Shown here piece by piece: positions 4,822 through 58,734 of a DNA stretch of 64,000 nucleotides. The DNA comes from Hygrophila difformis (taxonomy: Eukaryota > Streptophyta > Magnoliopsida > Lamiales > Acanthaceae), in the NCBI GenBank assembly GCA_030278955.1, contig JAOANR010000002.1:1550001-1614000 (forward strand), in the 5' to 3' direction. Position 1 is the first letter of the stretch. Every line of letters begins with the position of its first letter. The notes beneath the pieces are model-generated. The model was given only the letters and a program-made list of their open reading frames with translations, did no database searches and had not been told where the DNA came from. A program made the position numbers and the translations under genes.

Positions 4822-5331
4822 CTAGACCCGCGACATGGGTACCTCGACAGGTTTTCAGAAACTTGACAGAATGTCACCTTGTGTCGCTAAGCAGGGGTTG
4901 TGTCCGGACCGTGGGTCCGCGACAGGAGTTTAGCGACACAAGATTTTCTGAAAATTTTAAAGTATTTGGCTCCCAGTCGCTAATCTGGAAATTGTGTCGT
5001 GAGGCGTGGCCTCGCGACAGGGTGTCTAGCGACTGGGTTTTCAAAAATATTTACCAGGCATAATTTCCTGTCTCGGAATAAAGAGTGCTGTCGCGGACCG
5101 TCCGCGACAGGGGTGTTCCGCGACAGGAGCCATGCAGAGAAAAATAGCAAGAGTTTGGGTCCCTGGTCGCTAAGCAGGGTTTGTGTCGCGGACCGTGGGT
5201 CCGCGACAGGAGTGCCTCGCGACCGAGGGTTTCAAAATTTTAAGACAAGTGTCCCTAAACATCCATGTTGCGGAACAGCCTCCCTGTCGCTAGACGTGGC
5301 CTCGCGACAGGAGTCGGTTAGCGACATGGAT
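4822..5331. repeat. Hairpin array 2 of LTR C (GTCGC modules, downstream of TATA)
   Basis: This is a series of two-tier inverted repeats. One module has outer arms TGTCGCTAA / TTAGCGACA around inner arms ending GGACC / GGTCC (about 4890-4938). Another has outer arms CCAGTCGCTA / TAGCGACTGG around inner arms TGTCGTGAGGC / GCCTCGCGACA (about 4973-5036). A third has outer GGTCGC / GCGACC around TGTCGCGGACC / GGTCCGCGACA (about 5164-5224). Arm sequences differ between modules, but both sides change together. Confidence 0.85.
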
Positions 5332-5970
5332 GGTTCAGGACACAAGTCAGTAAAAGCAGAGTTGAACAGTGGCATGCAAACAGCGTGATCTCACCCTATT
5401 TCGGATTAAAAAGCTATTCTAAGCTAAAAACAACCAAACAACAATGGAAATATGCAAGAACATGCTAGAACAGAAATAAACTAAACTGGAACAGTATTTA
5501 AAAATAAAGCACTATCCTAATCTAGGGTTTGACCACACACATACATAACATCATCCATAAAAATAATGACAATAAGCATAATAAAGGGAAACGGGGGTCA
5601 AATGACTCCAAAATGAAAATGAAAGCATTAAATCCATGGGGTGTGAGACCCATTTCATGATTTGGGACACGTGATGCGAATATTTTCCCATATTATTAAA
5701 TGGGTTTGTTAATACCCATCATTTGGGTATTACAAAACCCTAAAAACAGAGTTTACATGGAAAAACATGGTGAAAACTGGCTACCTAACCACTGGAACAG
5801 TGGAAAACAGTAAACAAAATACTACACTAAGCTAAACTATGGACATAATTAAATAATACAAAAAAAAAATTAAAAACTAATCTACACTACCTAAGAACTG
5901 GGCGCTGATCTTGCCTTAAAGAGGATGAATTCTAATTTTTCCAACCCTGAGCTCAAGGGGGTCACCTCAT

Positions 5971-5977
5971 ATTTATA
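5971..5977 (-). promoter_or_regulatory. TATA box of LTR C
   Basis: TATAAAT on the minus strand, in the same context as the TATA box of LTR B (after an AGGGTTYC stretch, followed by ATGAGGTG). It is the probable core promoter for the genomic transcript and lies just downstream, in LTR orientation, of hairpin array 1. Confidence 0.65.
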
Positions 5978-6047
5978 GAAGTGGAACCCTAGGCCCATGG
6001 GCTTGATCTGAGGCCCACTGTGTCTCAAGACATCACACACATCACAC

Positions 6048-6300
6048 TGTGTCGCGGAATTTGAAGTCTGTCGCGGAACATCACTGCATGTGGTAAGGCT
6101 TCTCGACTGGGTCTTGGGTCTCTATTGGTGCGTCTGTGTCGCTAATCAGGCATGTGTCGCTAAACCATGGTCCGCGACTCGGGCCTAGCGCCACAGCCTA
6201 TCTGGACTTGTCTCTTCTTCATGCTGCATGTTGTGTCGCTAAACCCTCCTGTGTCGGTAGGCCATGGACCGCGACACAGGAGCTTCCGCGACCGGGTGTT
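6048..6300. repeat. Hairpin array 1 of LTR C (upstream of TATA)
   Basis: Repeated TGTCGCGGAA, TGTCGCTAA, GTCCGCGAC and TAGCG words in both orientations form degenerate versions of the modules at 4822-5331. In LTR orientation the array lies 70-330 bp upstream of the TATA box. Confidence 0.75.
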
Positions 6301-6611
6301 CCAGGACTGGGCTGAATGGGCCAGATGGGCCGAAATTGTTCTTTTTGTGGGCTTTTTCTATCTCTTCCCATCTTTTTGTATTCCTTCTCCTTTTCTTTTC
6401 TTTTTCTCATGTTTTTTGATTTTTCTAACATAAATGTGTAATAAAATTACATATTTATGCATTTTTCATACCAGCTAAATATTATTACAATTATGCATAA
6501 ATCAGTCCAATTCAACTGCTTTCTTATTTAATATAAGACCGGAATGCGATCAAATGCCCGTTTTAGACACGGAAATGGATTGAAAATAATGGTCATTTCT
6601 GGCCATTATCA

Positions 6612-14819: not shown

Positions 14820-14831
14820 TGGTATCAGAGC
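14820..14831 (+). other. Primer binding site (initiator tRNA-Met), element D
   Basis: TGGTATCAGAGC, complementary to the 3' end of initiator tRNA-Met, lies three bases after the LTR end. This is the usual primer of plant chromoviruses. Confidence 0.95.
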
Positions 14832-28062: not shown

Positions 28063-28397
28063 TGATAATGGCCAAAATTGTCCATTATTTCCAATCCATT
28101 TCCGTGTCTGAGACGGACATTTTGATCGTGATTCCATCTTATTTCAATAAGAAAACAGTTGAATTTGACAGATTAATGCGAGTTTGTAAAAACATCGAGC
28201 CGGTAACAAAAAGACACAAAATATACAATTTTAAATTGTATTTGTGTTAGAAAAATCCAAAAACATGAAAAAAGGAAAAAGAAAAAGAAAAAGGAATGAA
28301 AAGATGGGCAAAAGAATAAAAGAGCCCACAAAAATCCAAAAAGATGGGAAAAAGATTGAAAATCCCACAACTGAAAATTTGGTTAAGTGATTGAAGC

Positions 28398-28974
28398 ACA
28401 ATTCGAATTGTGAGCAATTCGAATTAATTCGAATTGCACAACAATTCGAATTGCTAAAGAGAGCAAGAAATGGTTAAGTGTTGGAAGGGATGCAGAAGGC
28501 TAGTTCGAATTATTCAAGTTCGAATTAATTCGAATTAGGGAATGAAGAGAGAAGAAGCCTAATTCGAATTGTTCAAGTTCGAATTAATTCGAATTAGGGA
28601 ATGAAGAGAGAAGAAGCCTAATTCGAATTCTTCAAGTTCGAATTAATTCGAATTAGGGAATGAAGAGAGAAGAAGCCTAATTCGAATTGTTCAAGTTCGA
28701 ATTAATTCGAATTAGGGAATGAAGAGAGAAGAAACCCAAAGGCAAGAAGAAGATGCAATTCGAATTGTCCAATTCGAATTAATTCGAATTGGCACAAACA
28801 ATTCGAATTGCCAACAAGTGCAAGGAAGCCAAGCAGAAACCCTCATCCAATTCGAGAAATACCAATTCGAATTATCACAACAATTCGAATTGACTACTGA
28901 AGGCTACAACTCCAACTCAAAGAAGGGATCTCACAATTCGAATTAATTCGAATTGGTTGAGATAATTCGAACTT
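28398..28974. repeat. TTCGAA hairpin array 1, 5' LTR A (upstream of TATA)
   Basis: Modules combine a central palindrome AATTCGAATTAATTCGAATT with outer AATTCGAATT half-sites 4-10 nt away. Four tandem 59-bp units (about 28503-28736) repeat one module with a GGGAATGAAGAGAGAAGAAG spacer. The array ends 44 bp before the TATA box. Confidence 0.95.
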
Positions 28975-29018
28975 CAGCTGTGGAGCAAGAACACAACACT
29001 GGTGGGCCTAGGGTTTTC

Positions 29019-29025
29019 TATAAAA
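29019..29025 (+). promoter_or_regulatory. TATA box, 5' LTR A
   Basis: TATAAAA after GGGCCTAGGGTTTTC. The equivalent context in LTR B carries TATAAAT (54610-54616). It is the probable start region of the genomic RNA. Confidence 0.65.
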
Positions 29026-29893
29026 GCAGACCTTCCACAACAGAATCAAGGGATCAAGAATTTTAACCAAAAGGCAGCTTGGGACAAAAAGAACAACAGG
29101 AGGTTCCACACCCCTTAAGGGTTAGGTAGGTAGTTTAGATTAGTTTAGTTTATTTTTCTTGCAAGTACTATAATCTTTACATGCTTTAATCTTAGTTTAG
29201 TGTAGAAGCAGTTTGTGTAACCCTTAGAGTAGCCATTTTCCATATGTCTACATGCTTTCTAGTTAGAATAAACCCTACCTTCAAGCCAATGATGGTTTTG
29301 GGTTCTTTATTTTGCTTTCAAAGTGTCAATACAAGAAAAATTTCCAGAAATGGTGTTATTCATGTGTTTTGGCACTCTTTAATGCTTTCTTTAGAAATCA
29401 ATGCTTAGTGTGTTTGTTTGTTTCAACTAGATTACATTTATTATGTCCTAGTTGACATTCAAACTCAATAAATGCATGTTTGTTGGGTTTTTGGCTTGAT
29501 TTAGTACCTTAGAGCTTCGAATAAGTGTTCTTAGGTTTTAGATGTTTTTAATGTCTGTGTTTAGTTGTATTTTAATTTTATTCTTCCTGCCTTAATCTTA
29601 TTTCGTGCTTCCTTAGATAACTTGTGTGTTCTTAGTTTACTCATGTAGTTCTTAGATAACTAGATGTTTTAGGCTCTTTGATCTCTGATTTCTTGTTTGT
29701 AGAAATAGGGTTTGAATCTGGCCAATACCCACTAGACATGTATTTGTTTATTTCTTGAAAATCTCACTAGGGTGGCTGTGAAATGACACTGATGTGAGAT
29801 GAGGGATTTAGTAAATCTAAACCCATCATTACAGTACAGTGTTCACCTAACCCATACTTGTGAGAACAAAAATTGTGTTGTCTGAAAATATGT

Positions 29894-30357
29894 GATTCGA
29901 ATTGAGGTAATTCGAATTAATTCGAATTGCTAAGGGAAATTCGAATTGCATATCCAAACTATTCTCTTCATGTGGTTTTCAACCAATTCGAATTATGTCA
30001 TTCAAGTTAATTCGAACTGCTCAACAATTCGAATTGGGTTAAAAACCACATTGTATCCATTGCCACCCATTCATGCCTTAGTTTATTTTCCATCCTTTAC
30101 CAATTCGAATTGTTGCAATTCGAATTAATTCGAATTGCTGTACAATTCGAACTCACCCTCCCTTTGAGGTAAATGCCTTAGTCAATTTGAGCAAGAAAGG
30201 GACTTCGCCAATTCGAATTGTCCAATTCGAATTAATTCGAATTGGCCAATAATTCGAATTGGATGATGCTCCAATTTCTAGCAATGATCAATTGAGTAAG
30301 TAATACTTCATCCTTCATGCATTCTCAATTCGAATTACCCCAATAATTCGAATTGGA
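29894..30357. repeat. TTCGAA hairpin array 2, 5' LTR A (downstream of TATA)
   Basis: Same module type. One has outer and inner arms beginning CCAATTCG and ending CGAATTGG (about 30209-30262); another is GC-flanked (29905-29950). It should be part of the transcript if transcription starts at 29019. Confidence 0.92.
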
Positions 30358-32952
30358 CTATCCCTTCTATTTTGGAAACTCCAAAAATATTTTCTTTCAT
30401 GATTTGTGTAAGTTGCATGGGTGTATTGGGCCTAGGCCCAATTCATCTGATTTCTGTCCACTACACATTTCAACCCATTAAGTGTCCACTTATTGTGTGC
30501 TTAACACCCACACAATACCAAAAATATTTTCTTACTTTTATTTTTTTCTTTCATTGTGTGTATGAACAGCTAATGAGAAACACCACAGATTAATGTTGGT
30601 GAAAGGTCCCTTCACAGGGATATCGACTAACCCGTCTTCTGTGTGTCAATCATTATCTGTTATTTTGCATGATCTGGTTAGTGGTTGGTGGAAGCTTCGG
30701 CGAGCGTTCTCTTCACTAAGAGTTTCGATTAGTCACTCAGCCAATTCCTAATCAGATACAGTTTTAATTTTCCTTATCTTAATTTCTCAACCTGAATTCA
30801 AGTTGCAATAGTATCAACTGATGTCGACCAACATCAGTTGAGAAATATTACAGTGAGAAATATGTGGGTCTTTCTTCCACTCACAGACAAAAGAAAACTA
30901 AATGACGGCGGTCACCGTTGTTTGGGATTCTTTCTGTCTACAATCATTCATCTTGGATAATTGGGAACCGGACAGCAGATGTTTGCAGTCCGGAAAACCT
31001 CAATTATCTCTGGCACTCTTTTCAGCCGATTTCTTCTCATCTCAGGCTAATCCATCTTGTGTATCGCATTCTGTCTAACCCCACCATATATTTTGGGGTG
31101 TTTTATTTTCCTTTTCATATACTTGTATGCATGATACTATTATGTAGATGTTCTTGTCATATCATTATTTTGGGGATCCTTCCCCTTGGACACAGAAGTC
31201 TTGATGTAAATCAGATGCCGCATAATAAATTTCCAACAAAAATTCCTTATTAAAATCCGGATCTGAGTAAGGGATAAATTCAACAGTTATGACTAATTCA
31301 TCTTCCACTGGGGGTTGATTTTGAGAGCTCAGAAGCAGAGTCAGCGATTAGGTCTCACCTAGACTGAAAGGATCTGTGTTTTAATTGAGAGTCTAGTACC
31401 TGTCTAGGGAATGATTTTCAAATATTCATTTGCTTCTCAAAATTGCTGTGTGTTGGAAATCTGATATTAGATATCGCATTAAGTCAATATCCACTTGGGT
31501 GTAGATGAGATGTGATAAATAATACTAGAGGAACGACATATAGGCCTTGGTGAATTTATAAGGTAAGGTCGAGTATTCCTTCGACTACTATCTTCTTCTG
31601 CCAAAGTCTAGAATTGAGTCTTGAGTGAGTACATCCGGAATAGGTTCATTTATGGATCTGTTTCATTTAGTTTGTATCTCATAACCACCCAGATGTTGTA
31701 AGCTCTGTGGCTTATTGATATCTCGGGGGTTCTTGATCTGCATCTGGTCACCAAGACCAGGGGCTCTTTTATACTAACGGAAAGAGACGTTTTTAACAAT
31801 TCCGAGTGATAGATTTAAATGCTTTCTTTACAGCTTTCTTAAACTGCTTTCCTTTAAATGCTTTCATAGAGGTCACTCGGAAGAATTAGGGGCTGTCCAT
31901 CTGTTAAAAGGTTTGAGAGTTATGGATTGGTTTGGGACTTCATTTGAAACTTTGGGTGTGACATGGGGGAATGATAGGAGTACTTGGCATATCAACTAAT
32001 GATATGTTAGGTGTTGCTTGTCTACCACAGATAGGTAATGTAACTTCACAAGGCCTGTGGAGGGAGTTATAAGTCTGTGGTATCTTAGAAATTGCTGTCT
32101 TAAGAGCATGTAAATTCTCATCGTAAGTACCTGTCTGTTAAAGGGAACATGGTGTAGAAAGCATGAGAGTTAGCTAACTAGAGGATTATCCCAAGCTAAG
32201 ATCTGTGTATAAAAAAAATTGGAAGTTTAATTGTGTTTCGTCTGAATCTTGTCCAATCTTTATTGTTTCCTCCCTGTCCCTTCTGTCATATTTTAAAACT
32301 GCTTTCTAGATAGCGTAGCATAATTTTATATTGCTTTCGTAGGATAGATTTAATTGTTTTCTTCGATCTAGTTTACCATGCTTTGTAGAATAATTTTTAC
32401 TGCTTTTATGATCTGGTTTAATTTATGTCAAGTAGTTGTTAGAAACCTTTGCAAAACTTGAAGCGAGTAACCGAGTGGAAAATCTTAGTAAACGACGTGG
32501 GGCCTGCTTCCATCGCACATCCTCCAGTGAACGATCCGGTACTTACTATAAATTACTGCAATTTTTTACCCGTGCGCTTTCGGGAGCACAGCTTCTTGAC
32601 ACGAGTAAATAAAAATAACATTTTGGGAAAATACTCATACAGTGGGAAGATGTTCAAGAATTTCATGGCAGGTATCTCTTTGACATGAAATTTAGAGAAG
32701 CATCATGGTGCAGATATCAGGGACTTTCAGGGTGACAGACTGAAGGTCCATCCCTATTGCACCGTGATATTTGTCAAAAGTTTCATGGCTGGGAGGACCA
32801 CAGCGCCGTTTGAACCCCACGGGAGTAATAAAAAGGGGAAATCTTAGCATATCCTTAAACCCTTCCCCCAATCATAACTCTTCTCATTTAATAAATCCAC
32901 ACCTGAGATTTCAGAAAATTACTCGTGTCGGCGAAGCTCGTCAAAAGTTTCA

Positions 32953-39529: not shown

Positions 39530-40071
39530 AATTCGAATTAATTCGAATTGCTTGGAACATACCACATAAGACATTTTGCCTTGGAATTTTTCACTCTCGG
39601 ATCTGTTAATTCGAGTTATTCTAGCAATTCGAATTAATTCGAATTGCCATGAAAATTCGAATTGGCAACCAAGGCAAACAAATTTTCGGATTTATTTAGG
39701 CCAAGTAGTGCAATTCGAATTATAAGGCAATTCGAATTAATTCGAATTGCCTAACTAACTCGAATTGGCAGGCACAAGGCATTTTCCTTAGCAAGTGAGC
39801 AATTCGAGTTATTCTAGCAATTCGAATTAATTCGAATTGCCTGAATAATTCGAATTAGCTCATTTCAGCCTTGTGCAAATTTTGCCCACATTCTCAAGTT
39901 CGAATTGTGAGTCAATTCGAATTAATTCGAATTGATCTCAATAATTCGAACTTGCTTGGTTTCTCTGTTTTTCAAGCCAATTCGAATTAATTCGAATTGG
40001 CCTGAATAACTCGCATCTCTCACAGATAGCATCAATTCGAATTAATTCGAATTGATGCAATAATTCGAACT
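39530..40071. repeat. TTCGAA hairpin array 3, between pol and ORF3
   Basis: Same modules as in the LTR. Outer arms covary: CAAGTTCGAATT / AATTCGAACTTG around an inner palindrome flanked by TC and GA (about 39894-39956), versus GC- and GGC-flanked modules at 39620-39845. It ends 15 bp before a TATA-like box. Confidence 0.93.
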
Positions 40072-40085
40072 CCCCTTCCAAATCC

Positions 40086-40095
40086 TTTTTATACC
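40086..40095 (+). promoter_or_regulatory. Predicted internal promoter for ORF3 (TATA-like)
   Basis: TTTTTATACC directly downstream of hairpin array 3. It is followed by a pyrimidine-rich, CT-repeat leader of about 135 nt and an ATG at 40231. This repeats the array-then-TATA layout of the LTR promoter. Confidence 0.5.
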
Positions 40096-40230
40096 TTTCT
40101 TTCCCTCTCATTCCCCTCACTTTCACTTTCCACACTTCCAAAACCCACCGTTCCCTCTCTCGCGAAACCCTTCCCCCTCGCGAAAACCAGTCGCTTATTT
40201 CAAGCTTTCCTCCGGCCAAATCACTCGGAA

Positions 40231-40268
40231 ATGGCTTCGTCGTCATCCAACCCTAGTGGGAGCAGGGG
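40231..40268 (+). CDS. Predicted first coding exon of ORF3
   Basis: The ATG opens twelve codons (Met-Ala-Ser-rich, ending Ser-Gly-Ser-Arg) plus two bases, followed by the strong donor GTAAGT at 40269. Joined to the acceptor at 41709, the two leftover bases complete a codon and the frame runs into ORF3 without a stop. The eight codons between that acceptor and ATG 41735 resemble the same region of element B, which shows that coding starts upstream of that ATG. The splice is predicted, not observed. Confidence 0.55.
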
Positions 40269-41709
40269 GTAAGTGTTTCTTTTCCGTTTTCGCACTTGGT
40301 TTCGCAGTTTACAGTTTTGTCTTTTCATCTCCCGTGCGAAATCAAGGTTGGGGAGGGGAATGCTTTTGTTTCTCATGACGGGAAGAGTGGGAAAGTGGTC
40401 GGAGTGCGTTGAGTTTGTTCAGAAACGGGGTAGAAATCGACTAGGCAGAACCTAGGGCTCTAGGTTTTGTGTTCTTAACTATCATTTAAGGGTTCGAAGT
40501 TTTCTGTGGTAAAGGAGATGTTCTTATTTTGAAAATGAGGGTCTCATAACCCTTAAAAATTTGATTTTTGTTCTTAGTACAGTATTGTTGTTTCATTTAT
40601 ATCTCTGGGTGCATTTGTATTATCTGTATTTGTGTTTTGCTAATCTGTGAATAGGGTTAACACGGTGGTCATGCTTGTTCAGCCATTGTGTTGTTTTTCA
40701 ATAGATAATTGGTGATGATGACTGAAAATGTATACTGATAATATCTGCAAAATTCATGTTTTTAAAGCATGAGTTTTGTTGGTGACATTAGTACATTACA
40801 GTAGTATAGATGGATCAACTGTTCTCGTTTCTAATAATGTTTGCATGTATAATATTATATGAATACTTTGGCAATAAATGCTTTTGTCGGGTACATGTTG
40901 CCCACATTTTGCAAACTCAACTCTAGAAGTTGATTTTTGCACATCCGGGACACATGGTACAGACGAAACCATGCCAAAATTTTTCCAACACTTGAAGCAT
41001 GGCATTTATGTGTAAAAAGACAAAATGATAGATTGTTCTTTTTGTTTAAAGTGTTTGATCTTTGTCAATTTGGAACAAGTGGGAAATACTTGTAAGGAAT
41101 GTTTTGTTTTATTCCTTAAAACCCCACTTTCCAAAACAAAATCCAAATGGGGGACCACTTACACCCCAAATTTCATTAAATAAACAAGTCAACACCTTTT
41201 CATAAAAATCCAAAAATCGCCTTTTGTATGTATGCATGTCTATTTTTATCTTTATTTTTTTATTTTTGGTCATGGTCCATTATACATACTAGTAATTGTA
41301 TGATTTATCGCTTGCATTCGATTTTCATCATTAATCTCTTATCTTCACTGCCTCACATGATTTAAATCACTTCTTAAGTGATAAAAATCAAATCCCTTCG
41401 TAGGCTCAATAACCTACGAAATTCTCTCTTTTTGGTCCTTTTACCACCCAAAAACATCTTAGACTATTTATAGTCCAAGAAAAATTTCTAAGGATCCAAG
41501 ATCCTTATATCTCTCTTGCTTTCTTTATTTTTGTTGTATTAAGAGTTCGATTTAACAATCCAGCTCTATGTTTTTCTTTCTATAAATTCGATTAGAAACC
41601 AATTAACTCACATTTAGAGCTTAGCTCAAAATGTGAGGATGTTGACTTTCAACTCGGATCCACTAAAAAAAAAAAAAATTTAAAATAGTTCCAACTCTTT
41701 TCTCTCCAG
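40269..41709 (+). other. Predicted ORF3 intron (1441 bp, GT-AG)
   Basis: Donor GTAAGT, acceptor CTTTTCTCTCCAG. It is AT-rich with an A run at 41667-41680. It holds a second copy of the stem-loop/PPT-like motif (41610-41645) and no long frame. Confidence 0.5.
41610..41645 (+). other. Stem-loop plus PPT-like motif, copy 2 (before ORF3)
   Basis: ACATTTAGAGC, loop TTA, GCTCAAAATGT (10 of 11 pairs), then GAGGATGTTGA. Copies 1 and 2 bracket the 2.4-kb block holding array 3, the internal promoter and the intron. Confidence 0.75.
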
Positions 41710-47615: not shown

Positions 47616-50600
47616 TGATAATGGCCAAAATTGTCCATTATTTCCAATCCATTTCCGTGTCTGAGACGGACATTTTGATCGTGATTCCATCTTATTTCAA
47701 TAAGAAAACAGTTGAATTTGACAGATTAATGCGAGTTTGTAAAAACATCGAGCCGGTAACAAAAAGACACAAAATATACAATTTTAAATTGTATTTGTGT
47801 TAGAAAAATCCAAAAACATGAAAAAAGGAAATAGAAAAAGAAAAAGGAATGAAAAGATGGGCAAAAGAATAAAAGAGCCCACAAAAATCCAAAAAGATGG
47901 GAAAAAGATTGAAAATCCCACAACTGAAAATTTGGTTAAGTGATTGAAGCACAATTCGAATTGTGAGCAATTCGAATTAATTCGAATTGCACAACAATTC
48001 GAATTGCTAAAGAGAGCAAGAAATGGTTAAGTGTTGGAAGGGATGCAGAAGGCTAGTTCGAATTATTCAAGTTCGAATTAATTCGAATTAGGGAATGAAG
48101 AGAGAAGAAGCCTAATTCGAATTGTTCAAGTTCGAATTAATTCGAATTAGGGAATGAAGAGAGAAGAAGCCTAATTCGAATTGTTCAAGTTCGAATTAAT
48201 TCGAATTAGGGAATGAAGAGAGAAGAAACCCAAAGGCAAGAAGAAGATGCAATTCGAATTGTCCAATTCGAATTAATTCGAATTGGCACAAACAATTCGA
48301 ATTGCCAACAAGTGCAAGGAAGCCAAGCAGAAACCCTCATCCAATTCGAGAAATACCAATTCGAATTATCACAACAATTCGAATTGACTACTGAAGGCTA
48401 CAACTCCAACTCAAAGAAGGGATCTCCCAATTCGAATTAATTCGAATTGGTTGAGATAATTCGAACTTCAGCTGTGGAGCAAGAACACAACACTGGTGGG
48501 CCTAGGGTTTTCTATAAAAGCAGACCTTCCACAACAGAATCAAGGGATCAAGAATTTTAACCAAAAGGCAGCTTGGGACAAAAAGAACAACAGGAGGTTC
48601 CACACCCCTTAAGGGTTAGGTAGGTAGTTTAGATTAGTTTAGTTTATTTTTCTTGCAAGTACTATAATCTTTACATGCTTTAATCTTAGTTTAGTGTAGA
48701 AGCAGTTTGTGTAACCCTTAGAGTAGCCATTTTCCATATGTCTACATGCTTTCTAGTTAGAATAAACCCTACCTTTAAGCCAATGATGGTTTTGGGATCT
48801 TTATTTTGCTTTCAAAGTGTCAATACAAGAAAAATTTCCAGAAATGGTGTTATTCATGTGTTTTGGCACTCTTTAATGCTTTCTTTAGAAATCAGTGCTT
48901 AGTGTGTTTGTTTGTTTCAACTAGGTTACATTTATTATGTCCTAGTTGACATTCAAACTCAATAAATGCATGTTTGTTGGGTTTTTGGCTTGATTTAGTA
49001 CCTTAGAGCTTCGAATAAGTGTTCTTAGGTTTTAGATGTTTTTAATGTCTGTGTTTAGTTGTATTTTAATTTTATTCTTCCTGCCTTAATCTTATTTCGT
49101 GCTTCCTTAGATAACTTGTGTGTTCTTAGTTTACTCATGTAGTTCTTAGATAACTAGATGTTTTAGGCTCTTTGATCTCTGATTTCTTGTTTGTAGAAAT
49201 AGGGTTTGAATCTGGCCAATACCCACTAGACATGTATTTGTTTATTTCTTGAAAATCTCACTAGGGTGGCTGTGAAATGACACTGATGTGAGATGAGGGA
49301 TTTAGTAAATCTAAACCCATCATTACAGTACAGTGTTCACCTAACCCATACTTGTGAGAACAAAAATTGTGTTGTCTGAAAATATGTGATTCGAATTGAG
49401 GTAATTCGAATTAATTCGAATTGCTAAGGGAAATTCGAATTGCATATCCAAACTATTCTCTTCATGTGGTTTTCAACCAATTCGAATTATGTCATTCGAG
49501 TTAATTCGAACTGCTCAACAATTCGAATTGGGTTAAAAACCACATTGTATCCATTGCCACCCATTCATGCCTTAGTTTATTTTCCATCCTTTACCAATTC
49601 GAATTGTTGCAATTCGAATTGCTGTACAATTCGAACTCACCCTCCCTTTGAGGTAAATGCCTTAGTCAATTTGAGCAAGAAAGGGACTTCGCCAATTCGA
49701 ATTGTCCAATTCGAATTAATTCGAATTGGCCAATAATTCGAATTGGATGATGCTCCAATTTCTAGCAATGATCAATTGAGTAAGTAATACTTCATCCTTC
49801 ATGCATTCTCAATTCGAATTACCCCAATAATTCGAATTGGACTATCCCTTCTATTTTGGAAACTCCAAAAATATTTTCTTTCATGATTTGTGTAAGTTGC
49901 ATGGGTGTATTGGGCCTAGGCCCAATTCATCTGATTTCTGTCCATTACACATTTCAACCCATTAAGTGTCCACTTATTGTGTGCTTAACACCCACACAAT
50001 ACCAAAAATATTTTCTTACTTTTATTTTTTTCTTTCATTGTGTGTATGAACAGCTAATGAGAAACACCACAGATTAATGTTGGTGAAAGGTCCCTTCACA
50101 GGGATATCGACTAACCCGTCTTCTGTGTGTCAATCATTATCTGTTATTTTGCATGATCTGGTTAGTGGTTGGTGGAAGCTTCGGCGAGCGTTCTCTTCAC
50201 TAAGAGTTTCGATTAGTCACTCAGCCAATTCCTAATCAGATACAGTTTTAATTTTCCTTATCTTAATTTCTCAACCTGAATTCAAGTTGCAATAGTATCA
50301 ACTGATGTCGACCAACATCAGTTGAGAAATATTACAGCGAGAAATATGTGGGTCTTTCTTCCACTCACAGACAAAAGAAAACTAAATGACGGCGGTCACC
50401 ATTGTTTGGGATTTTTTCTGTCTACAATCATTCATCTTGGATAATTGGGAACCGGACAGCAGATGTTTGCAGTCCGGAAAACCTCAATTATCTCTGGCAC
50501 TCTTTTCAGCCGATTTCTTCTCATCTCAGGCTAATCCATCTTGTGTATCGCATTCTGTCTAACCCCACCATATATTTTGGGGTGTTTTATTTTCCTTTTC

Positions 50601-52436
50601 ATATACTTGTATGCATGATACTATTATGTAGATGTTCTGGTCATATCATTATTTTTGGGATCCTTCCCCTTGGACACAGAAGTCTTGATGTAAATCAGAT
50701 GCCGCATAATAAATTTCCAACAAAAATTCCTTATTAAAATCCGGATCTGAGTAAGGGATAAATTCAACAGTTATGACTAATTCATCTTCCACTGGGGGTT
50801 GATTTTGAGAGCTCAGAAGCAGAGTCAGCGATTAGGTCTCACCTAGACTGAAAGGATCTGTGTTTTAATTGAGAGTCTAGTACCTGTCTAGGGAATGATT
50901 TTCAAATATTCATTTGCTTCTCAAAATTGCTGTGTGTTGGAAATCTGATATTAGATATCGCATTAAGTCAATATCCACTTGGGTGTAGATGAGATGTGAT
51001 AAATAATACTAGAGGAACGACATATAGGCCTTGGTGAATTTATAAGGTAAGGTCGAGTATTCCTTCGACTACTATCTTCTTCTGCCAAAGTCTAGAATTG
51101 AGTCTTGAGTGAGTACATCCGGAATAGGTTCATTTATGGATCTGTTTCATTTAGTTTGTATCTCATAACCACCCAGATGTTGTAAGCTCTGTGGCTTATT
51201 GATATCTCGGGGGTTCTTGATCTGCATCTGGTCACCAAGACCAGGGGCTCTTTTATACTAACGGAAAGAGACGTTTTTAACAATTCCGAGTGATAGATTT
51301 AAATGCTTTCTTTACAGCTTTCTTAAACTGCTTTCCTTTAAATGCTTTCATAGAGGTCACTCGGAAGAATTAGGGGCTGTCCATCTGTTAAAAGGTTTGA
51401 GAGTTATGGATTGGTTTGGGACTTCATTTGAAACTTTGGGTGTGACATGGGGGAATGATAGGAGTACTTGGCATATCAACTAATGATATGTTAGGTGTTG
51501 CTTGTCTACCACAGATAGGTAATGTAACTTCACAAGGCCTGTGGAGGGAGTTATAAGTCTGTGGTATCTTAGAAATTGCTGTCTTAAGAGCATGTAAATT
51601 CTCATCGTAAGTACCTGTCTGTTAAAGGGAACATGGTGTAGAAAGCATGAGAGTTAGCTAACTAGAGGATTATCCCAAGCTAAGATCTGTGTATAAAAAA
51701 AATTGGAAGTTTAATTGTGTTTCGTCTGAATCTTGTCCAATCTTTATTGTTTCCTCCCTGTCCCTTCTGTCATATTTTAAAACTGCTTTCTAGATAGCGT
51801 AGCATAATTTTATATTGCTTTCGTAGGATAGATTTAATTGTTTTCTTCGATCTAGTTTACCATGCTTTGTAGAATAATTTTTACTGCTTTTATGATCTGG
51901 TTTAATTTATGTCAAGTAGTTGTTAGAAACCTTTGCAAAACTTGAAGCGAGTAACCGAGTGGAAAATCTTAGTAAACGACGTGGGCCCTGCTTCCATCGC
52001 ACATCCTCCAGTGAACGATCCGGTACTTACTATAAATTACTGCAATTTTTGACCTGTGCGCTTTCGGGAGCACAGCTTCTTGACACGAGTAAATAAAAAT
52101 AACATTTTGGGAAAATACTCATACAGTGGGAAGATGTTCAAGAATTTCATGGCAGGTATCTCTTTGACATGAAATTTAGAGAAGCATCATGGTGCAGATA
52201 TCAGGGACTTTCAGGGTGACAGACTGAAGGTCCATCCCTGTTGCACCGTGATATTTGTCAAAAGTTTCATGGCTGGGAGGACCACAGCGCCGTTTGAACC
52301 CCACGGGAGTAATAAAAAGGGGAAATCTTAGCATATCCTTAAACCCTTCCCCCAATCATAACTCTTCTCATTTAATAAATCCACACCTGAGATTTCAGAA
52401 AATTACTCGTGTCGGCGAAGCTCGTCAAAAGTTTCA
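47616..52436 (+). repeat. 3' LTR of element A (4821 bp)
   Basis: 69 bp shorter than the 5' LTR. It has three rather than four 59-bp units (about 48056-48229) and lacks 10 bp in one palindrome near 49612. Hairpin arrays lie at 47951-48468 and 49389-49840, with the TATA box at 48513-48519. Confidence 0.96.
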
Positions 52437-53096
52437 GGTGGGAATTGCGGCAGATAGTGAGCCGGGTAAGTAATTTCCCTTGTATATGGGTGAATCTGTA
52501 GGTTGGGAGAAATAGGGTACACGACCGGTGCCGGAGGCGGTACTGGGGGTGGGGTGTTTAGGATCGAGGCATAGGCGTTGGGTGCATAGCACTTATTTGG
52601 AACAAATTTTGGTTTCACTAAGATCTTTGACAAAAAATGAAGGATGGTGTCGTGATTTTTGAATGAATTTGGTTTGCCATGTGATATGTGTTTGGGGATT
52701 AGTAGCAGATATTATGAAATAGGGCCGAATATGTGCTTCCTCTGCCACAATGGATTTGGAATGTTGGTTGATAAATTAAGGGGCAACAGTACTAAGTATA
52801 AGCATAATTGGGAAATTTGTATATTGTAAATGGTATATATGCCATAGTATGATGGATTTATATGTTCTAAGAAACATCAGGTGCTAGTAATGTATTTTGG
52901 TTATTCAGATTGTGTTAATTTGTAGTATCTGCAAGATTGAAATCATAGGTAGGTTGTAGAGTGGAATGTTGTATGTGCTGGTTGAACTTTGTTGGAGCAT
53001 TTCAGTGTAGTATAATTTGTGGTTTAGTGGTGATGTGTATTTTAATTTGATGCAGGGAGTTTGGTCTGCGGGAGGCATTTTGCAGGGTGATCAGGA
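52437..53096 (+). other. Right flank of element A: donor, intron and acceptor of the split gene
   Basis: The interrupted exon ends at GAGCCGG followed by GTAAGT (donor about 52466). The segment to 53056 is AT/GT-rich like an intron and ends TTTGATGCAG. Forty bases later the ATG at 53097 opens the next CDS. Confidence 0.45.
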
Positions 53097-53990
53097 ATGG
53101 CAAGAAAGTCATACGAGAAGACAGGTGGGAAGAAAGCGGCCGACAGTTCAAAAGAGAAAGGAGTAAGTAGGGATGGGGTGGTTGTGGATGGGAGAGGGAA
53201 GGAGATAGGGCAAAGTAGTGAGGGGAAGTGTGTGGAGGATGGATCACAGGTGAGAGGGCAGAGCAGCAAAGGGAAAAATAGGGATGAAGGAAAGAAAAAG
53301 AAAGTGGTACAGAAGAAAGAGGGAAAAAGGAGTGTTAGGAAGGGTAAGGAAGGGGAGGAGGCGGGGTTGACGACGAGGTGCTCACCACAATTTTTCAGGG
53401 CGACTATGGATGGAATCATTGTGGAACTTACCGAAGAGCAGAAAGTAGCAATGAGGAGGACCCCTTTCTGGCATTTCATGCAATGTCCAACGGGTTACAG
53501 TAGTTTATCGTGGTTAGAAGCTTTGGTGGGGTGCTACTGTGCAGAGGGTACGAGTTTCCTCATTGTGGAGGATTTGGAGTTGAAGTTTCCAGTAGCGGAG
53601 TTCTGTTGCGTCATGGCACTGCAGAAGGATGGGCAGTATGTCCACCCAAAATTTCAAGAGAAGAGTACGACAGTTGATAAGTATTTCGGGAGAAGTGTTG
53701 CTAATGTGAAGCGGAAGAAGATTATTAAGGTGTTAAGGAAAATGTGTGGGGGTGAGGCTGCGGTGTTGGGTAGAGATGACCCCGAGGATGCAGCAAGGAT
53801 GTATGTATTATTGGTGTTCAACTGCATATTGTTCCCCACTGCACACCAGTATGTTCCACCTTTTGTCATACACTACGTTGATGACCTTCAAAGAATAGGG
53901 AATTACGCTTGGGGAGCTGCGGCGCACACATATCTGTTGGATTGCCTGAAGAATTGCCATGAAGGGAAGAAGTACGCCGATGGCTGCTGA
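53097..53990 (+). pseudogene. Plant-mobile/Ulp1-associated (DUF1985-like) protein, truncated by element B
   Basis: A 297-aa frame. Residues 1-95 are Lys/Gly/Ser-rich and basic. From RCSPQFF the sequence follows a pattern known from the N-terminal domain of plant transposon proteins that often precede Ulp1-type proteases: T-EQ-A-R, an FPVAEF segment, a DDPEDAARMYVLLVFNCILF helix, then VDDLQRIGNYAWGAAAHTYL. Element B starts at 53988, and its first bases TGA supply the stop codon after GlyCys. The true C-terminus lies beyond element B, outside the window. Together with the cut exon at 28062/52442, this gene was hit by two Athila copies. The family is assigned by pattern only. Confidence 0.6.
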
Positions 53991-54292
53991 TAATGGCCAG
54001 AATTGACCATTATTTTCAATCCATTTCCGTGTCTTAAACGGGCATTTGATCGCATTCCGGTCTTACATTAAGTAAGAAAGCAGTCGAATTGGACTGATTT
54101 ATGCATAATTGTAAAAAATAATAAGCTGGTGTGAAAAAGGCATAAATATGTAATTTTACTACATATTTATGTTAGAAAAATCCAAAAACATGAGAAAAAG
54201 AAAAGGAAACAAAAAGATGGGAAAAAGATAGAAAAGCCCACAAAAAGAATATTTTCGGCCCATCTGGCCCAATCCAGCAGGCCCAGGAAGAC

Positions 54293-54541
54293 CTTTGTCG
54301 CGGAAGCCCCTTGGCGCGATGCAGTGTTCCGCGACAAAGGAGGGGTTCCGCGACCAAGTGGCCCAGATGAAGAGGAGACCAGCCAAGCCCTTTGTCGCGA
54401 TGACCTTTGTCGCGATGGCATGCTCCGCGACAAAGGCATGTTCCGCGACCAAGATGCACAATTAGAGACACAAGACCCAGTCGAGAAGCCTTGCCACATG
54501 CAGTGTGTTCCGCGACCAACTTGATGCTCCGAGACAGAGCT
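54293..54541. repeat. GTCGCGG hairpin array 1, LTR B (upstream of TATA)
   Basis: Repeated TTTGTCGCGGAA, GTTCCGCGAC and CGCGATG words in both orientations, ending about 70 bp before the TATA box. Confidence 0.85.
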
Positions 54542-54609
54542 GTGATGTGTGTGATGTCTTGAGACACAATGGGCTCAAATCAAGGCCCATGAGCTTAGGG
54601 TTTCCCCTC

Positions 54610-54616
54610 TATAAAT
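54610..54616 (+). promoter_or_regulatory. TATA box, LTR B
   Basis: TATAAAT in CCCCTCTATAAATATGAGG, matching LTR C (5971-5977) and the position of TATAAAA in LTR A. Confidence 0.68.
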
Positions 54617-55236
54617 ATGAGGTGTCTCCTTTGAGCTAGAGGTTGGAAGAATTTTAGAGAAAATACTCACTCTTGAAGACAAGTGGGAAGTTCAGTAGTT
54701 AGTTTAGTTTAGGGTAGTTTAGTTAGATTTTTTTTGTATTATTTAATTTATGCACTAGTTAGAAGTAGTTTACTGCACTTGGGTTAGATAGCCAGTTTTA
54801 CACCTTGTTTCTTGTTCAAAACTTTTGTTTAAGGGTTTGTGGTACCCAAACCATGGGTATGAACAACACCGTTTAATAATATGGGAAAACATTCTCCATT
54901 TGTGTCCCAAAATCATGAAATGGGTCTCACACCCCATGGATCTTACTGTTTTCGTTTTCCTTGGGTCATTTGACCCTCGTTTTGCATTTTAATGTCACTG
55001 CTTGGTGACTTTTTCTTGGGATAATGTTGCATGCTTATGGGTGATCAAGCTCAGATTAGGGTTTTTTAAGTTTTAAGTTTGTTTTGTTTCTTTTATGTTC
55101 AAGCATGTTCTAGCTAGATTCAAATTCTTTTTGTTATTTTGAGCTTAGTTTAGCTTTTGAATCTGAAATGGGTGAGATCACACATAATGCATGCCACTGT
55201 TCCACTTTACTTTTCTGACATGTGTACTGGACACAC

Positions 55237-55707
55237 TTTTGTCGCGGAACAACTCTTGTCGCGGAACCACGTTCCGCGACAAAATGGTGCTTTGGCGACA
55301 AAGGTGCCAAAGAACATTTGTTGACCATTATTTTAAAACCCTTGGTCGCGAAACACCCCTTGGCGCGGAACCACGTTCCGCGACAAAATCTTGATTAGCG
55401 ACCAAGGACCCAAATACTTGTGATTTTATTCTGGAAGGGCTTTGTCGCGAAGCAACCTTGTCGCGGAACCACGTTCCGCGCCAAAACCTCTTGTTCCGCG
55501 ACAAGAATTATGCCTTGTCCAATTTTCAACCTTTTTGTCGCTATGCCCTTGTCGCGGAACCACGTTCCGCGACAAAATTTTCTTTACTTAGCGACAAAGC
55601 AAACCCTAAGTTTTCAAAATTCCATTCCTCTTATTTCCCACCCCTTTGTCGCGAAACCTTTGTCGCGGAGCCACGCTCCGCGACACAAACTCTGCATCGC
55701 GACAAGG
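55237..55707. repeat. GTCGCGG hairpin array 2, LTR B (five two-tier modules)
   Basis: Five modules have inner arms TGTCGCGGAAC / GTTCCGCGACA around CAC; the fifth has GGAGC / GCTCC. The outer arms differ by module but pair: CTTTTGTCGC / GCGACAAAGG (55237-55304), CCTTGGTCGC / GCGACCAAGG (about 55340-55407), TTGTCGCG / CGCGACAA (about 55442-55504), TTTGTCGCTA / TAGCGACAAA (about 55533-55598), and CCTTTGTCGCGA / TCGCGACAAGG with a bulge (about 55642-55707). Confidence 0.93.
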
Positions 55708-58533
55708 TGGCACCTTTTTGCCAAGTTTTCATTCTTCATCTCACTTCATTAATTAATTGAACCTTTATATAATATTTTGAGGTTGAGATCCAATGATCTC
55801 AACCCACGATCAATTTGATATAAAGAACTTTGTTCAATTTCCCATTAAAAGATCCTTCTACAAATCATTAAACTCTAATGATCTAAGCATATAATCCGGA
55901 CTGTAATTAATTAATTATGGAATGAGTGATTATTTAGATATAAAGAGTAATTATGGATTCATTTCCATACCTTGCATGAGAAACCAATGTCTCTCATGCA
56001 AGATGACCCAAAATATTTTTCTTTTATTTATTTTGTTTTGTCTTTTCCGTGATGTGTGAAACAGCTAATAAGGAATATATCAGATTAATGTTGGCGGGTA
56101 TTCCCACACGGATAACTAGCTCGTGATCTGTATATTAATTACTAGTTGTTATTTTGCATGGTCCGGATAGTGGTCGGTGGAAGCCTTGGCGGTTCGTCCC
56201 TCCGGGATTATAATAGCTGCTCAGCTGACTCCCATCCGGATACAGTTTTCTTTTCTTTATTTTAATTTCAAACCTGAATCTAGAGCTGTAGTAATGTTAG
56301 ATGATATATGCCAATGTTATCTAATAATTATTGTAGTAATAGAATATGTGGGTTTTTATCCAAATTCACAGATAGTGGAGTCTGAGATGACGGCGGCAAC
56401 TGTCATTTGAGGCAATTCACTATCTAAAAATCATCCCACCTGAAATGATTAGGACCTGGATAGCAGATGTTTGCAGTCCGGATTATCCTGATTATTTTTG
56501 TCATCTTTTTTTTAGCCAAATAAATTCTTCTTATCTCCGGCTATTTCATCTCTGTGTTTCACATTCTGTCTAAACCCACCTTATATTTTGGGTTATTTTA
56601 TTTTACACTTCTCTATAAATTTATGCATGATATTACTATGTAGATAGTGTGGTCATATTATTTTGGGATCCTTCCCTTGGACATAGAAGTCTTGATTTAA
56701 ATCAGATGTTCCACAATAAATTTCCAACAAAAATTCCTTAATAAAATCCAGATCTGAGTAAGGGATAAATTCAACAGTTATGACTAATTCACATCCGACT
56801 GGGGGTTGATTTTGGGAAAATAGAAGCAGAGTCAACGATTAGGTCTCACCTAGACTGAAAGGATCTGTGTTTTAATTGAGAGTCTAGTACCTGATAGGGA
56901 ATGATTTTCAGATTTATTATTTTCCAAAATTGCTGTTTGTTGGAAATCTTGTATTAAATATTGCACTGGGTCAGATTCCACTTGGCTTCCGGTAAGGTGT
57001 AATAGATAATACTAGAGGAACAACATCCGGGCCTTGGTTATTTTCTAAGGTAGGGTTGAGTATTCTCTCAACTGCTATTTTCTTCTGCCAAAGCCTATTT
57101 TTGAGTCCTGAGTGAGTGCATCCGGAACGAACTAATTTATTAGTTTGTTTCATTAGTTTGTATCTCATAACCACCCGACGGGAAGTGAACACTGCGAGCG
57201 GTTCACCGAGAATAGGGAATTCTTGATCCACATCCAGCCATTCTGACTGGGGGGCTTTCTTTTACTACCAGGGTCAGACCTTCAAAAAACCTCCGAGTGA
57301 TAGGATTTTAAACGCTTTCTTTACCGCTTTCTTTTAAATGCTTTCGTTAGAGGTCACTCGGTTGTATTGAGAGTTGTGTAACTACTACTAGGACTGAGAG
57401 TTAAGGGATAGTTCAGGGCTTGATTAGAATCTTCGGGTGTGACATGGGGGAATGATAGCGGTACTTGCCACTTCAATAAATGATTTGTCAGGTGTAGCTT
57501 GTCCACCACAGATGAATAACATGCCCCTACACGGCCGTGTGAGGGCAGTTGTGAGTCTGTGGTATCTTAGATTTTGTTGTCTTAAGAGCATGTAAACTCT
57601 CACTGTAAGTACCTGTCTGTTAAAGGGAACATGGTATAGAGAACATGAGAGTTAGCTAACTGATGGATTATTCCAAGCTAAGATCTGTGAATTAAACTGG
57701 AAGTTTAATTGTGTTTCATCTGAATCTTGTCCAATCTTTATTCTTTTCTTCCTGTCTCTTCTGTCTCATTTTAAATCTGCTTTCTTAGAATAATTTTAAT
57801 CGCTTTCTTAGAATAATTCTATTGCTTTCTTAGATTAAATTTAATTCGCTTTCTAGAATAATCTTATATGCTTTATTTTAATTGCTTTCATAGCCTAATT
57901 TAAATTATGTCAAGTAGTTGTTAGTCATTTCACACACTTGAATCGAGTAACCGAGTGGAAAATCTAGATAAATGACGTGGGCCCTGCTTCTATCGCACAT
58001 CCTCCAGTGAACGATCCGGTCTTACTATAAATTACTGCAATTTTTGACACCGCGCGCTTTCGGGGGCACAGTTTCTTAAACACGAGCAATAAAAACATGA
58101 CTACTTATAAATATATCCCTAATCACAACCCTGCCATCATAAATTGATTTCATTAAATAAAATCTAAACCAGGATCATGATTTTTCGGAAAATACTCATG
58201 TAGTGGGAATCAGTCAAAAGTTTCATGGCAGGAAATCTTATGACAAGGATTGATGAGAAGTATCATGGCATATTTGTCGGGGATCCTCACTGTGACAGGC
58301 TGAAGGGTCAACTTATCCCGGCTGTGCCATGAGATTTGTCAACATTTCATGACAGAGAGGACCACAGCGCCATTTGAAACCAACGCACCATACTTGAGTA
58401 ATAAAAAGACTGTTAAGCTTAGTATATATATCCCTAAACCCCTTCCCGAAAATCATAACTCTTTTCATGTAATAAATCTAACCTGGTATATTTTAGAAAA
58501 TGCTCGTGGGACGGAAATTGTCAAAAAGTTTCA

Positions 58534-58551
58534 TGGCGCCGTTGCCGGGGA
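58534..58551 (+). other. Primer binding site (tRNA-Asp), element B
   Basis: TGGCGCCGTTGCCGGGGA, identical to element A. Confidence 0.93.
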
Positions 58552-58673
58552 GGATGCAGCGTCGTTTATTAAGAGGATTACACTCCTGATTACTCCTAGA
58601 TTAGCTTAGATCAGTCTAGTTTAGTGTAATATATCGAATCAAGAACAGAAAAAGTACCCTCAAGATTAATTGA

Positions 58674-58712
58674 ACATTTAGAGTACCAAGACTCTAAATG
58701 TGAGGATGTTGA
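58674..58712 (+). other. Stem-loop plus PPT-like motif, element B
   Basis: ACATTTAGAGT, loop ACCAAG, ACTCTAAATGT (perfect 11-bp stem), then GAGGATGTTGA. It lies 22 bp before ORF3. The loop differs from copy 1 in A but the stem is the same. Confidence 0.8.
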
Positions 58713-58734
58713 ACTGAGGAGAAAACCTAACCTA

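What the first reader, a model, noticed from the sequence alone, without database searches (positions are those of the whole stretch)
55237..55707. Two-tier hairpin modules with covarying stems in the GTCGCGG-type Athila LTRs (B and C)
Seen: five modules in LTR B and at least three in LTR C each nest an inner stem within an outer stem. Inner stems change on both sides together: GGAAC/GTTCC, GGAGC/GCTCC in B; GGACC/GGTCC, GAGGC/GCCTC in C. Outer stems do too: CCTTGGTCGC/GCGACCAAGG, TTTGTCGCTA/TAGCGACAAA, CCAGTCGCTA/TAGCGACTGG. Paired change with varying sequence points to selection on a folded RNA or cruciform, not on a protein-binding word. Inference: a structural element in the retroelement RNA (packaging, translation, protection or dimerisation) or a DNA structure affecting transcription. 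I know of no description of it.
Basis: partly seen in the sequence, partly recalled or inferred. Interest (0 to 1): 0.88.

Follow-up and report, generated by a model that had tools for sequence, protein, structure and literature searches.

The report
Swappable palindrome arrays in Athila LTRs
Large plant retrotransposons of one family group carry, at matching places around their promoter, evenly laid-out sets of hairpin-forming repeats whose layout stays much the same while the repeated 'word' differs between subfamilies, much like regulatory palindromes known from an unrelated retrotransposon group.

Summary
LTR B has five two-tier inverted-repeat modules; LTR C has five orthologous ones (plus a degraded sixth). 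Between B and C, 18 of 124 usable pairs changed on both sides and still pair (null mean 4.1, max 12).

The RNA reading is only partly supported. Forty B copies show no paired change. Forty C copies (90-100% identical) show excess paired change only in the inner palindrome. G·U and A·C mismatches are balanced.

A larger pattern emerged. LTR A in the window and LTR E nearby fill the same slots with five leader modules about 100 nt apart (A's fifth is half) and similar four-word geometry, but with unrelated words: AATTCGAATT in A, ACGACGCTA in E, GTCGC in B/C. E's 5' end is 92.6% identical to C. Element A also has an array upstream of its env-like gene.

Best reading: the Ty3/gypsy counterpart of the palindromic repeated-motif arrays of Sireviruses, probably a transcriptional cis-regulatory array whose transcript also folds into hairpins that may feed small-RNA silencing. 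A new variant of a known kind; function was not tested.

The parts
53988..58533 (+). LTR B (start good to about 20 bases); primer-binding-site-like TGGCGCCGTTGCCGGGG begins 58534
   Evidence: further B LTR downstream at C8:1614860-1619412, taken as the 3' LTR of the same element
2041..6611 (-). LTR C (TGATAATGG... to ...TTTCA, primer-binding-site-like sequence follows)
28063..32952 (+). 5' LTR of element A (target-site duplication GGTGG at 28058-28062 and 52437-52441)
47616..52436 (+). 3' LTR of element A; 17 substitutions in 4821 aligned bases against the 5' LTR
54290..54452 (+). LTR B, U3 array: two four-word modules upstream of the TATA box at about 54609
55237..55303 (+). LTR B leader module 1
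55340..55407 (+). LTR B leader module 2
55441..55505 (+). LTR B leader module 3
55533..55599 (+). LTR B leader module 4 (outer TTTGTCGCTA/TAGCGACAAA)
55638..55710 (+). LTR B leader module 5 (inner GGAGC/GCTCC)
4877..5332 (-). LTR C leader array: five modules orthologous to those of B
4791..4850 (-). degraded sixth module of LTR C
6125..6300 (-). LTR C, U3 array: two modules upstream of the TATA box
28396..28975 (+). LTR A, U3 array of AATTCGAATT words, part of it tandemly amplified in 59-base units with a different word spacing
29891..30357 (+). LTR A leader array of AATTCGAATT words: four four-word modules (one with a degenerate inner word) and one two-word module
39530..40072 (+). element A internal array of the same word, between the gag-pol frame (33100-39087) and the env-like frames (41735 on); four complete modules and three partial ones; z = -20.4
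40088..40275 (+). TATA-like and pyrimidine-rich stretch, ATG at 40231, 5' splice-site-like GTAAGTG at 40269: candidate internal promoter and first exon of the env-like gene (inferred)

Best explanation
Each LTR family of this Athila-like group examined here carries an array of its own short, CpG-containing inverted word in two fixed slots. One lies just upstream of the TATA box (two clusters of words in B, C and E, more in A). The other is a row of five modules about 100 nt apart in the leader downstream of it. A leader module has four words, outer-left, inner-left, inner-right, outer-right, with gaps of 14-17 nt, a gap that is constant within A, B and E (10, 18, 15), and 17-22 nt. [Shown for four LTR families.] Element A has a third array upstream of its env-like gene. 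[Shown in one element.]

I infer that the array works as the palindromic repeated motifs of Sireviruses are thought to work: as a transcriptional cis-regulatory array, a dense dyad platform for a DNA-binding host factor, acting on the LTR promoter and, in A, on an internal env promoter. The layout is kept because spacing and dyad symmetry matter. The word changes when the recognised sequence changes, and spreads to the modules by conversion or selection. A transcript of the leader would fold into hairpins, a likely entry point for Dicer and siRNA silencing. The flanks that co-vary between B and C are best explained by strand-neutral maintenance of dyad symmetry (compensation or arm-copying) rather than by a conserved sense-RNA fold. 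[All of this paragraph is inference.]
For: Word positions: 42 of the 43 TTCGAA in A's 5' LTR lie in the two slots. All GTCGC/GCGAC in B and C lie there, on both sides of the TATA box.
Similar layout with three unrelated words: A, B/C, E. Outer-left words of successive leader modules are 91-117 nt apart in A, 93-111 in B, 92-116 in E.
All four LTRs with Athila anchors found in the 200 kb beside the window carry a leader array (two C-like, one E, one B).
E's 5' end is 92.6% identical to C and its R region 82.7% to B, yet the word differs.
Arrays keep CpG (observed/expected 0.96-1.65) against 0.46-0.54 in the rest of the LTRs and 0.61 in gag-pol.
Internal array before the env-like gene of A, as in env-bearing Sireviruses (PMC2829016: section 9 read, passages). 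Candidate ATG-to-donor length 38 plus acceptor-to-ORF length 25 equals 63, in phase.
No strand bias of mismatches. Stem sites are less often polymorphic than non-stem sites in young B copies: 34 of 258 against 63 of 283, p = 0.007.
Against: No expression, methylation, small-RNA or binding data were available, and no host factor is named. Five of the modules lie 600 nt or more downstream of the TATA box, which is unusual for an enhancer. A word-binding protein alone does not explain why module-specific flanks pair: word-masked flanks in A are cognate (p = 0.001 over 11 modules, 0.025 internal, 0.08 leader), and outer flanks co-vary between B and C. U3 clusters do not share the leader's layout throughout: in E each has one left and three right words, and part of A's U3 has another spacing. 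The two plant-like relatives L001/L002 have no such array in the 3-4 kb after their pol at the threshold used, and B has none before its Transposase_32 frame. In the C family, stem and non-stem sites do not differ in the share that is polymorphic (125 of 252 against 125 of 229, p = 0.31).
Confidence: 0.5

Rival explanations
1. Selected RNA structure: the leader hairpins work in the retroelement RNA (packaging, dimerisation, translation, protection), and compensatory mutations keep them.
For: 18 double changes of 42 changed pairs between B and C, in all five modules; arms pair cognately in C; strong folds, z = -12 to -20; lower polymorphism in B stems; paired changes are not seen as one-step events in young copies, which fits stepwise compensation; in B the commoner stem variants are G.U-forming (35 cells against 8 A.C-forming).
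Against: No G.U over A.C preference in standing mismatches (13:14), nor in distinct new changes pooled over B and C (54:55); in C the cells even lean to A.C (124 against 70). Outer stems of 40 C copies show no covariation. A mismatched state is common at some pairs (26 cells A.C at 5026/4988). The words recur in U3 upstream of the TATA box.
Confidence: 0.2
2. Mutational self-maintenance without function: reverse transcriptase or polymerase copies one arm of a hairpin onto the other (quasi-palindrome correction), and modules convert each other. Palindromes then stay paired and words homogenise by themselves.
For: Strand-neutral mismatches; double changes often adjacent (55534-55536, 55557-55559); inner palindromes homogenised within B, and the word of other modules found in module 4 of some C copies.
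Against: 0 of 34 distinct stem changes in 40 young B copies are double, whereas a one-step mechanism should produce some; but many of these changes may postdate insertion and so never passed through reverse transcription. It does not explain the fixed slots, five modules, conserved asymmetric spacing and retained CpG in families with unrelated words.
Confidence: 0.22
3. Small-RNA source: the hairpins are kept as, or mistaken for, precursors of siRNAs or miRNA-like RNAs.
For: Maize Sirevirus LTR palindromes are small-RNA hot spots (PMC5311732 and PMC10760457, passages). Weak Rfam resemblance of the B leader to the plant microRNA family MIR6297: 35.5 bits, gathering 114, E = 6e-4.
Against: The Rfam match is far below gathering, fits both strands and spans two modules; C gives no such match, and A's palindromes give similarly weak matches to other microRNA families. 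In Arabidopsis no genome-wide correlation of DCL3-RdDM target elements with palindromes or inverted repeats was detected (PMC4977677, passage). No small-RNA data here. A cost to the element does not explain why it keeps the arrays.
Confidence: 0.08

Closest known systems
Sirevirus palindromic repeated motifs (RM boxes), Bousios et al. 2010, PMC2829016 (section 9 read in full; other passages)
   Same: High-copy palindromic word clustered in the LTR upstream of the TATA box, with differing words between families; [quoted passage not shown] CpG-rich clusters; short distance to the TATA box.
   Different: Sireviruses are Ty1/copia, these are Ty3/gypsy. Core CGG-CCG there; TTCGAA, GTCGCG or GACGCTA here. 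Here there is a second, downstream cluster of five regularly spaced modules, and four words are nested as two tiers with asymmetric spacing, which the parts I read do not describe.
Maize Sirevirus LTR palindromes as siRNA hot spots and fast-evolving regions (Bousios et al. 2016, not held; known from passages citing it in PMC5311732 and PMC10760457)
   Same: Strong secondary structure from palindromes in the LTR cis-region that evolves fast; expected target of small-RNA silencing.
   Different: No small-RNA evidence here; different superfamily; different words in LTRs otherwise about 83-92% identical (C and E 5' ends, B and E R regions).
Grande retrotransposon accessory gene with its own internal promoter (title seen only, in a reference list)
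   Same: Gene after pol in a plant LTR retrotransposon, transcribed from its own promoter.
   Different: The title names no palindromic array; here the promoter is predicted only.

Membership tests
Sirevirus-type palindromic repeated-motif array | many copies of one palindromic word clustered upstream of the LTR TATA box | tested here: met
   A, B, C, E; a second cluster lies downstream of the TATA box
Sirevirus-type palindromic repeated-motif array | extra copies upstream of env in env-bearing elements | tested here: inconclusive
   met in element A; no word cluster after the LTR of B in the window nor in the 3-4 kb after pol in L001/L002
Sirevirus-type palindromic repeated-motif array | core CGG-CCG signature | tested here: not met
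   absent from AATTCGAATT and ACGACGCTA; B's inner stem does hold CGG/CCG, but the word shared by the arms is GTCGC; one listed Sirevirus, Tnd-1, also lacks it
Sirevirus-type palindromic repeated-motif array | clusters form CpG islands | tested here: inconclusive
   CpG observed/expected 0.96-1.65 in arrays against 0.46-0.54 elsewhere in the LTRs; the G+C criterion of a CpG island was not applied, and A's word is A+T-rich
Sirevirus (as an element) | Ty1/copia order, integrase before reverse transcriptase | tested here: not met
   in 33100-39084 reverse transcriptase (1171-1326) precedes integrase (1698-1791)
Athila (Ty3/gypsy) | gag, RT, RNase H, INT in this order, long LTRs, additional env-like gene after pol | tested here: met
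   element A: (the extra frame 42602-46003 matches Pfam Transposase_32; that it is env-like is inferred from position)
Athila (Ty3/gypsy) | position in an RT phylogeny; primer binding site of the Athila type | not tested
   no tree was built; the primer-binding-site attribution is recalled, no call
conserved structured RNA element | compensatory base-pair change above chance in orthologues | tested here: met
   B against C, leader modules; U3 modules weak; within the C family only the inner palindrome; none within B
conserved structured RNA element | G.U tolerated over A.C on the transcribed strand | tested here: not met
   13:14, 41:48, 13:7
MIR6297 microRNA | Rfam gathering score | tested here: not met
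   35.5 bits against 114

The most novel reading that the evidence does not exclude
Athila LTRs carry a modular 'address' with a rapidly switching word: a fixed scaffold of U3 clusters and five leader modules, plus an env-promoter array, whose recognition word is replaced in every slot while the LTR's 5' end and R region stay about 83-92% alike. That would be an arms race or code between families and a host DNA- or RNA-recognition system (transcription factor, or siRNA-guided silencing), with pairing and dyad geometry under selection rather than any one sequence.
Probability: 0.25. Interest if true: 0.82.

Novelty: new variant of a known kind. Interest (0 to 1): 0.6.

Why it matters
If the arrays are regulatory, two unrelated superfamilies of plant retrotransposons have converged on the same solution: family-specific palindrome arrays at the LTR promoter and before env. 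The Athila arrays add a countable scaffold (five modules, four words, narrow spacings) on which word, pairing and position can be varied separately. They would also offer a concrete candidate for an internal env promoter, which the Sirevirus work could not conclusively identify, and a natural series of swapped words for asking what the host recognises when it silences or activates these elements.

Tried and rejected
Rejected: simple gene conversion of one perfect palindrome as a full account. Inner palindromes fit it in part; the outer parts are closest to their orthologues (0.659) and not to paralogues (0.533 and 0.466).
Rejected: descent of A's leader spacers from B's as shown fact; with words masked the alignment is weak (z = 2.6 against B, 0.65 against C). 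E's spacers against C are also weak (z = 2.8); the stronger E-B score (10.7) may come from the shared stretch just after module 5. So whether words were swapped in place, or whole array segments were exchanged, stays open.
Rejected: heat-shock, E2F, CAMTA or auxin-response sites as a common factor; by eye the words do not fit across families (recalled consensus sequences, no call).
Rejected: the palindrome-rich stretch 7146-7690 as a relative; it looks like a hAT-type MITE (label recalled).
Led nowhere: exact-word scans of viral contigs, gag-pol in viral contigs, protein search with the env-like frame, pattern search for LTR starts (not completed).
Weak or negative results: U3 modules of B and C; B inner (rank 42 of 120) and B outer (14 of 120) pairing is not clearly cognate; with the core masked, outer ranks are 34 (B) and 9 (C) of 120; flank pairing of the three double words in A's leader alone p = 0.33.
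Literature searches on Athila with palindromes, hairpins, inverted repeats, CpG islands or internal promoter. No listed title or abstract start describes these arrays; only the papers named in this report were opened, by passages or one section (PMC6911290, PMC4029996 and PMC11963269 too, without passages on such arrays); most subscription papers are not in the library.

Full report
WHAT WAS CHECKED. The window lies in a 915-Mb, 246-contig genome (contig C8, 1550001-1614000). It holds an element A with two LTRs and a matching 5-base target-site duplication (LTRs 28063-32952 and 47616-52436, GGTGG), LTR B (about 53988-58533) and, on the minus strand, LTR C (6611-2041). Element A has one open gag-pol frame with RT before integrase (Ty3/gypsy order) and further frames after pol, of which 42602-46003 matches Pfam Transposase_32; I call them env-like from their position.

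THE OBSERVATION. B's leader has five two-tier modules and C's has five. They align one to one, spacers included. With pairs taken from folds of B and read in C, 124 of 129 pairs were usable: 82 unchanged, 26 changed but still paired (18 on both sides, 8 on one), 16 broken. Permutation gives 4.1 double changes on average, 12 at most, in 20,000 trials; the reverse direction gives 18 against 3.8, at most 10. Split by tier: 9 inner and 9 outer double changes, null means 2.65 and 2.39. The upstream U3 modules show little or none of this (3 against 2.2, p = 0.38; reverse 5 against 1.8, p = 0.013). Strong local folding as such is not confined to the arrays: of 1278 windows, 66 have z below -4, some of them elsewhere.

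HOW MUCH OF IT IS SELECTION ON A FOLD. Four tests cut both ways. First, inner palindromes are partly homogenised: B paralogues 0.913 alike, B-C orthologues 0.742, C paralogues 0.666; outer parts show the opposite, orthologues 0.659 against paralogues 0.533 and 0.466. Second, in 40 B copies (98-100% identical, the window's own and LTR pairs of one element included) stem sites are less often polymorphic than others (34 of 258 against 63 of 283, p = 0.007), yet none of 34 distinct stem changes is double. Third, in 40 C copies (the window's own, one, 38; 90-100%) double changes exceed the null only in inner stems (19 cells in 5 pairs, null 8.7, max 16), not outer ones (2 cells, null 1.6, p = 0.48). 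Nucleotide diversity there is 0.054 in stems and 0.068 outside, and the share of polymorphic sites does not differ (125 of 252 and 125 of 229). The permutation ignores relatedness of the copies, so even the inner signal may be inflated. Fourth, an RNA helix on the transcribed strand should keep G·U and lose A·C. Standing mismatches in 26 modules are 13 and 14 (9 and 9 in the 15 leader modules), and distinct new changes are 41 and 48 in C and 13 and 7 in B. A sense-RNA fold is therefore not what is visibly being protected, although paired change over the longer B-C distance is real. Many of these copies may be dead and drifting, which dilutes any signal.

THE LARGER PATTERN. In A's LTRs the word GTCGC does not occur at all. 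Instead TTCGAA occurs 43 times in the 5' LTR, all but one in two slots that correspond to those holding GTCGC in B and C: upstream of the TATA box and in the leader (homologous anchors on either side). A's leader has four four-word modules, one with a degenerate inner word, and one two-word module. Word-to-word spacing is 14-15, 10, 17-19 in A's leader, 14-17, 18, 18-22 in B, and 17-18, 10, 18-19 in the four complete internal modules of A. In C the left gaps are 14-17 and, where the words were found, inner 18 (14 in C3) and right 19-20. In 200 kb around the window four LTRs with Athila anchors were found, and all four carry a leader array: two C-like, the other B LTR, and E. E (C8:1470758-1475073, minus strand) has a 5' end 92.6% identical to C, a TATA zone 75% identical to B over 104 bases and an R region 82.7% identical to B, but its arrays are made of ACGACGCTA/TAGCGTCGT. 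It has five leader modules, outer-left words 92, 97, 116 and 107 apart, left gaps 14-17, inner 15, right gaps 19-20, and two U3 clusters of four words each, oriented one left and three right, unlike the two-and-two of the leader. Scaffold largely constant, word exchanged: that is the finding I would put in front of a reader. In A, the flanks of the words also pair module by module: 17 inner double words, flank-run total 53 against 39.1, p = 5e-5 (four of the 17 are near-identical tandem copies; internal seven alone p = 0.005, leader three alone p = 0.33). With words masked, p = 0.001 over 11 modules, 0.025 for the internal seven, 0.08 for the leader four.

A THIRD ARRAY. Element A has the same word at 39530-40072, between pol and the env-like frames, folding far better than shuffles (z = -20.4). 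It is followed by a TATA-like and pyrimidine-rich stretch, an ATG at 40231 and GTAAGTG at 40269. A splice acceptor-like CAG ends at 41709. The lengths 38 and 25 add to 63, so the frame of the ORF at 41735 could be entered; the agreement of phase alone has a one-in-three chance.

WHAT IT IS. Bousios et al. 2010 (PMC2829016; section 9 read in full, passages elsewhere) describe palindromic repeated motifs in Sirevirus LTRs. They are high-copy, with differing words between families, clustered upstream of the TATA box, forming CpG islands, with extra copies at the 5' side of env. The arrays here match in position, palindromy, family-specific word, CpG retention (0.96-1.65 against 0.46-0.54 in the rest of the LTRs) and, for A, the env-side cluster. 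They differ in superfamily, in the core word and in the regular two-tier, five-module leader scaffold. I therefore file them as working like Sirevirus repeated motifs, not as members of that family. Later papers (passages of PMC5311732 and PMC10760457) report that such palindromes are small-RNA hot spots in maize; an Arabidopsis study saw no genome-wide link of its DCL3-RdDM targets with palindromes (passage of PMC4977677). Neither could be tested here.

MECHANISM. Most likely (0.5): a cis-regulatory dyad array with hairpin RNA as by-product and silencing liability. Rivals: mutational self-maintenance (0.22), selected RNA structure (0.2), small-RNA source (0.08). The combination of strand-neutral decay, narrow spacing, repetition of one word on both sides of the promoter and before env, and retained CpG is what tips me to the DNA-level reading. 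The module-specific pairing of flanks is what it explains least well.

LIMITS. Only one window plus 200 kb and 80 leader copies (40 B and 40 C) were read. The searches had 3,031 and 3,209 first-look candidates for the B and C leaders; only the 40 best of each were scored and read. How often words switch, and whether segments are exchanged or words replaced in place, is open.

Noticed in passing
53988-64000 and C8:1614860-1619412: Element B appears non-autonomous: soon after its primer-binding-site-like sequence it continues with sequence that in A follows pol, and its two long frames (58735-60975 and 61195-63237) match no gag, RT or integrase Pfam, yet the 40 copies scored for its leader are all 98-100% identical.
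   Followed up: partly
39191, 41630, 47603, 58697: Four exact copies of AATGTGAGGATGTTGA, the polypurine-tract-like sequence that precedes the 3' LTR of A. At 39191 and 58697 the copy overlaps the right arm of a perfect hairpin ACATTTAGAGT/ACTCTAAATGT, reminiscent of the multiple tracts and inverted repeat of Sireviruses.
   Followed up: partly
12059-14820 and 19031-21791: A second repeated pair, 99.7% identical and probably LTRs, with only about 4 kb between them and a Transposase_32 frame on the minus strand; it has a direct tandem array (AACGAGGC) but no inverted-word array was found, a useful control.
   Followed up: partly
7120-7695: TACCG/CGGTA palindrome-rich element with terminal inverted repeats (TAGGGCTGGGG ... 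CCCACCCCTA) and an 8-base near-duplication, probably a hAT-type MITE; a similar word cluster near C8:1540808-1541358 (label recalled).
   Followed up: partly
L001 and L002: Two bacterial assemblies in GTDB (Geminicoccus harenae and Solirubrobacter sp., both CPCC strains) contain contigs of 9.0 and 9.8 kb, 99.6% identical over 9 kb, that encode an Athila-like gag-pol (46% identity in the best segment; open throughout 452-6010 in L001): probably plant contamination.
   Followed up: partly
C8:1713108-1713368, C8:1483567-1483813, C8:1523861-1524046: Further clusters of inverted words (TGGCGCCA, GTCGGTAA, CTTCGGTC) near the window with no Athila LTR anchors detected around them; nature not determined.
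   Followed up: no
L004-L042 and the window, pairs 55367/55379 and 55237/55303: In young B copies the two commonest stem variants are a G.U-forming change (15 of 40) and a wobble-to-Watson-Crick change (11 of 40), while A.C-forming changes never exceed 2 copies; by distinct changes (13 to 7) this is not decisive but worth testing on more copies.
   Followed up: partly
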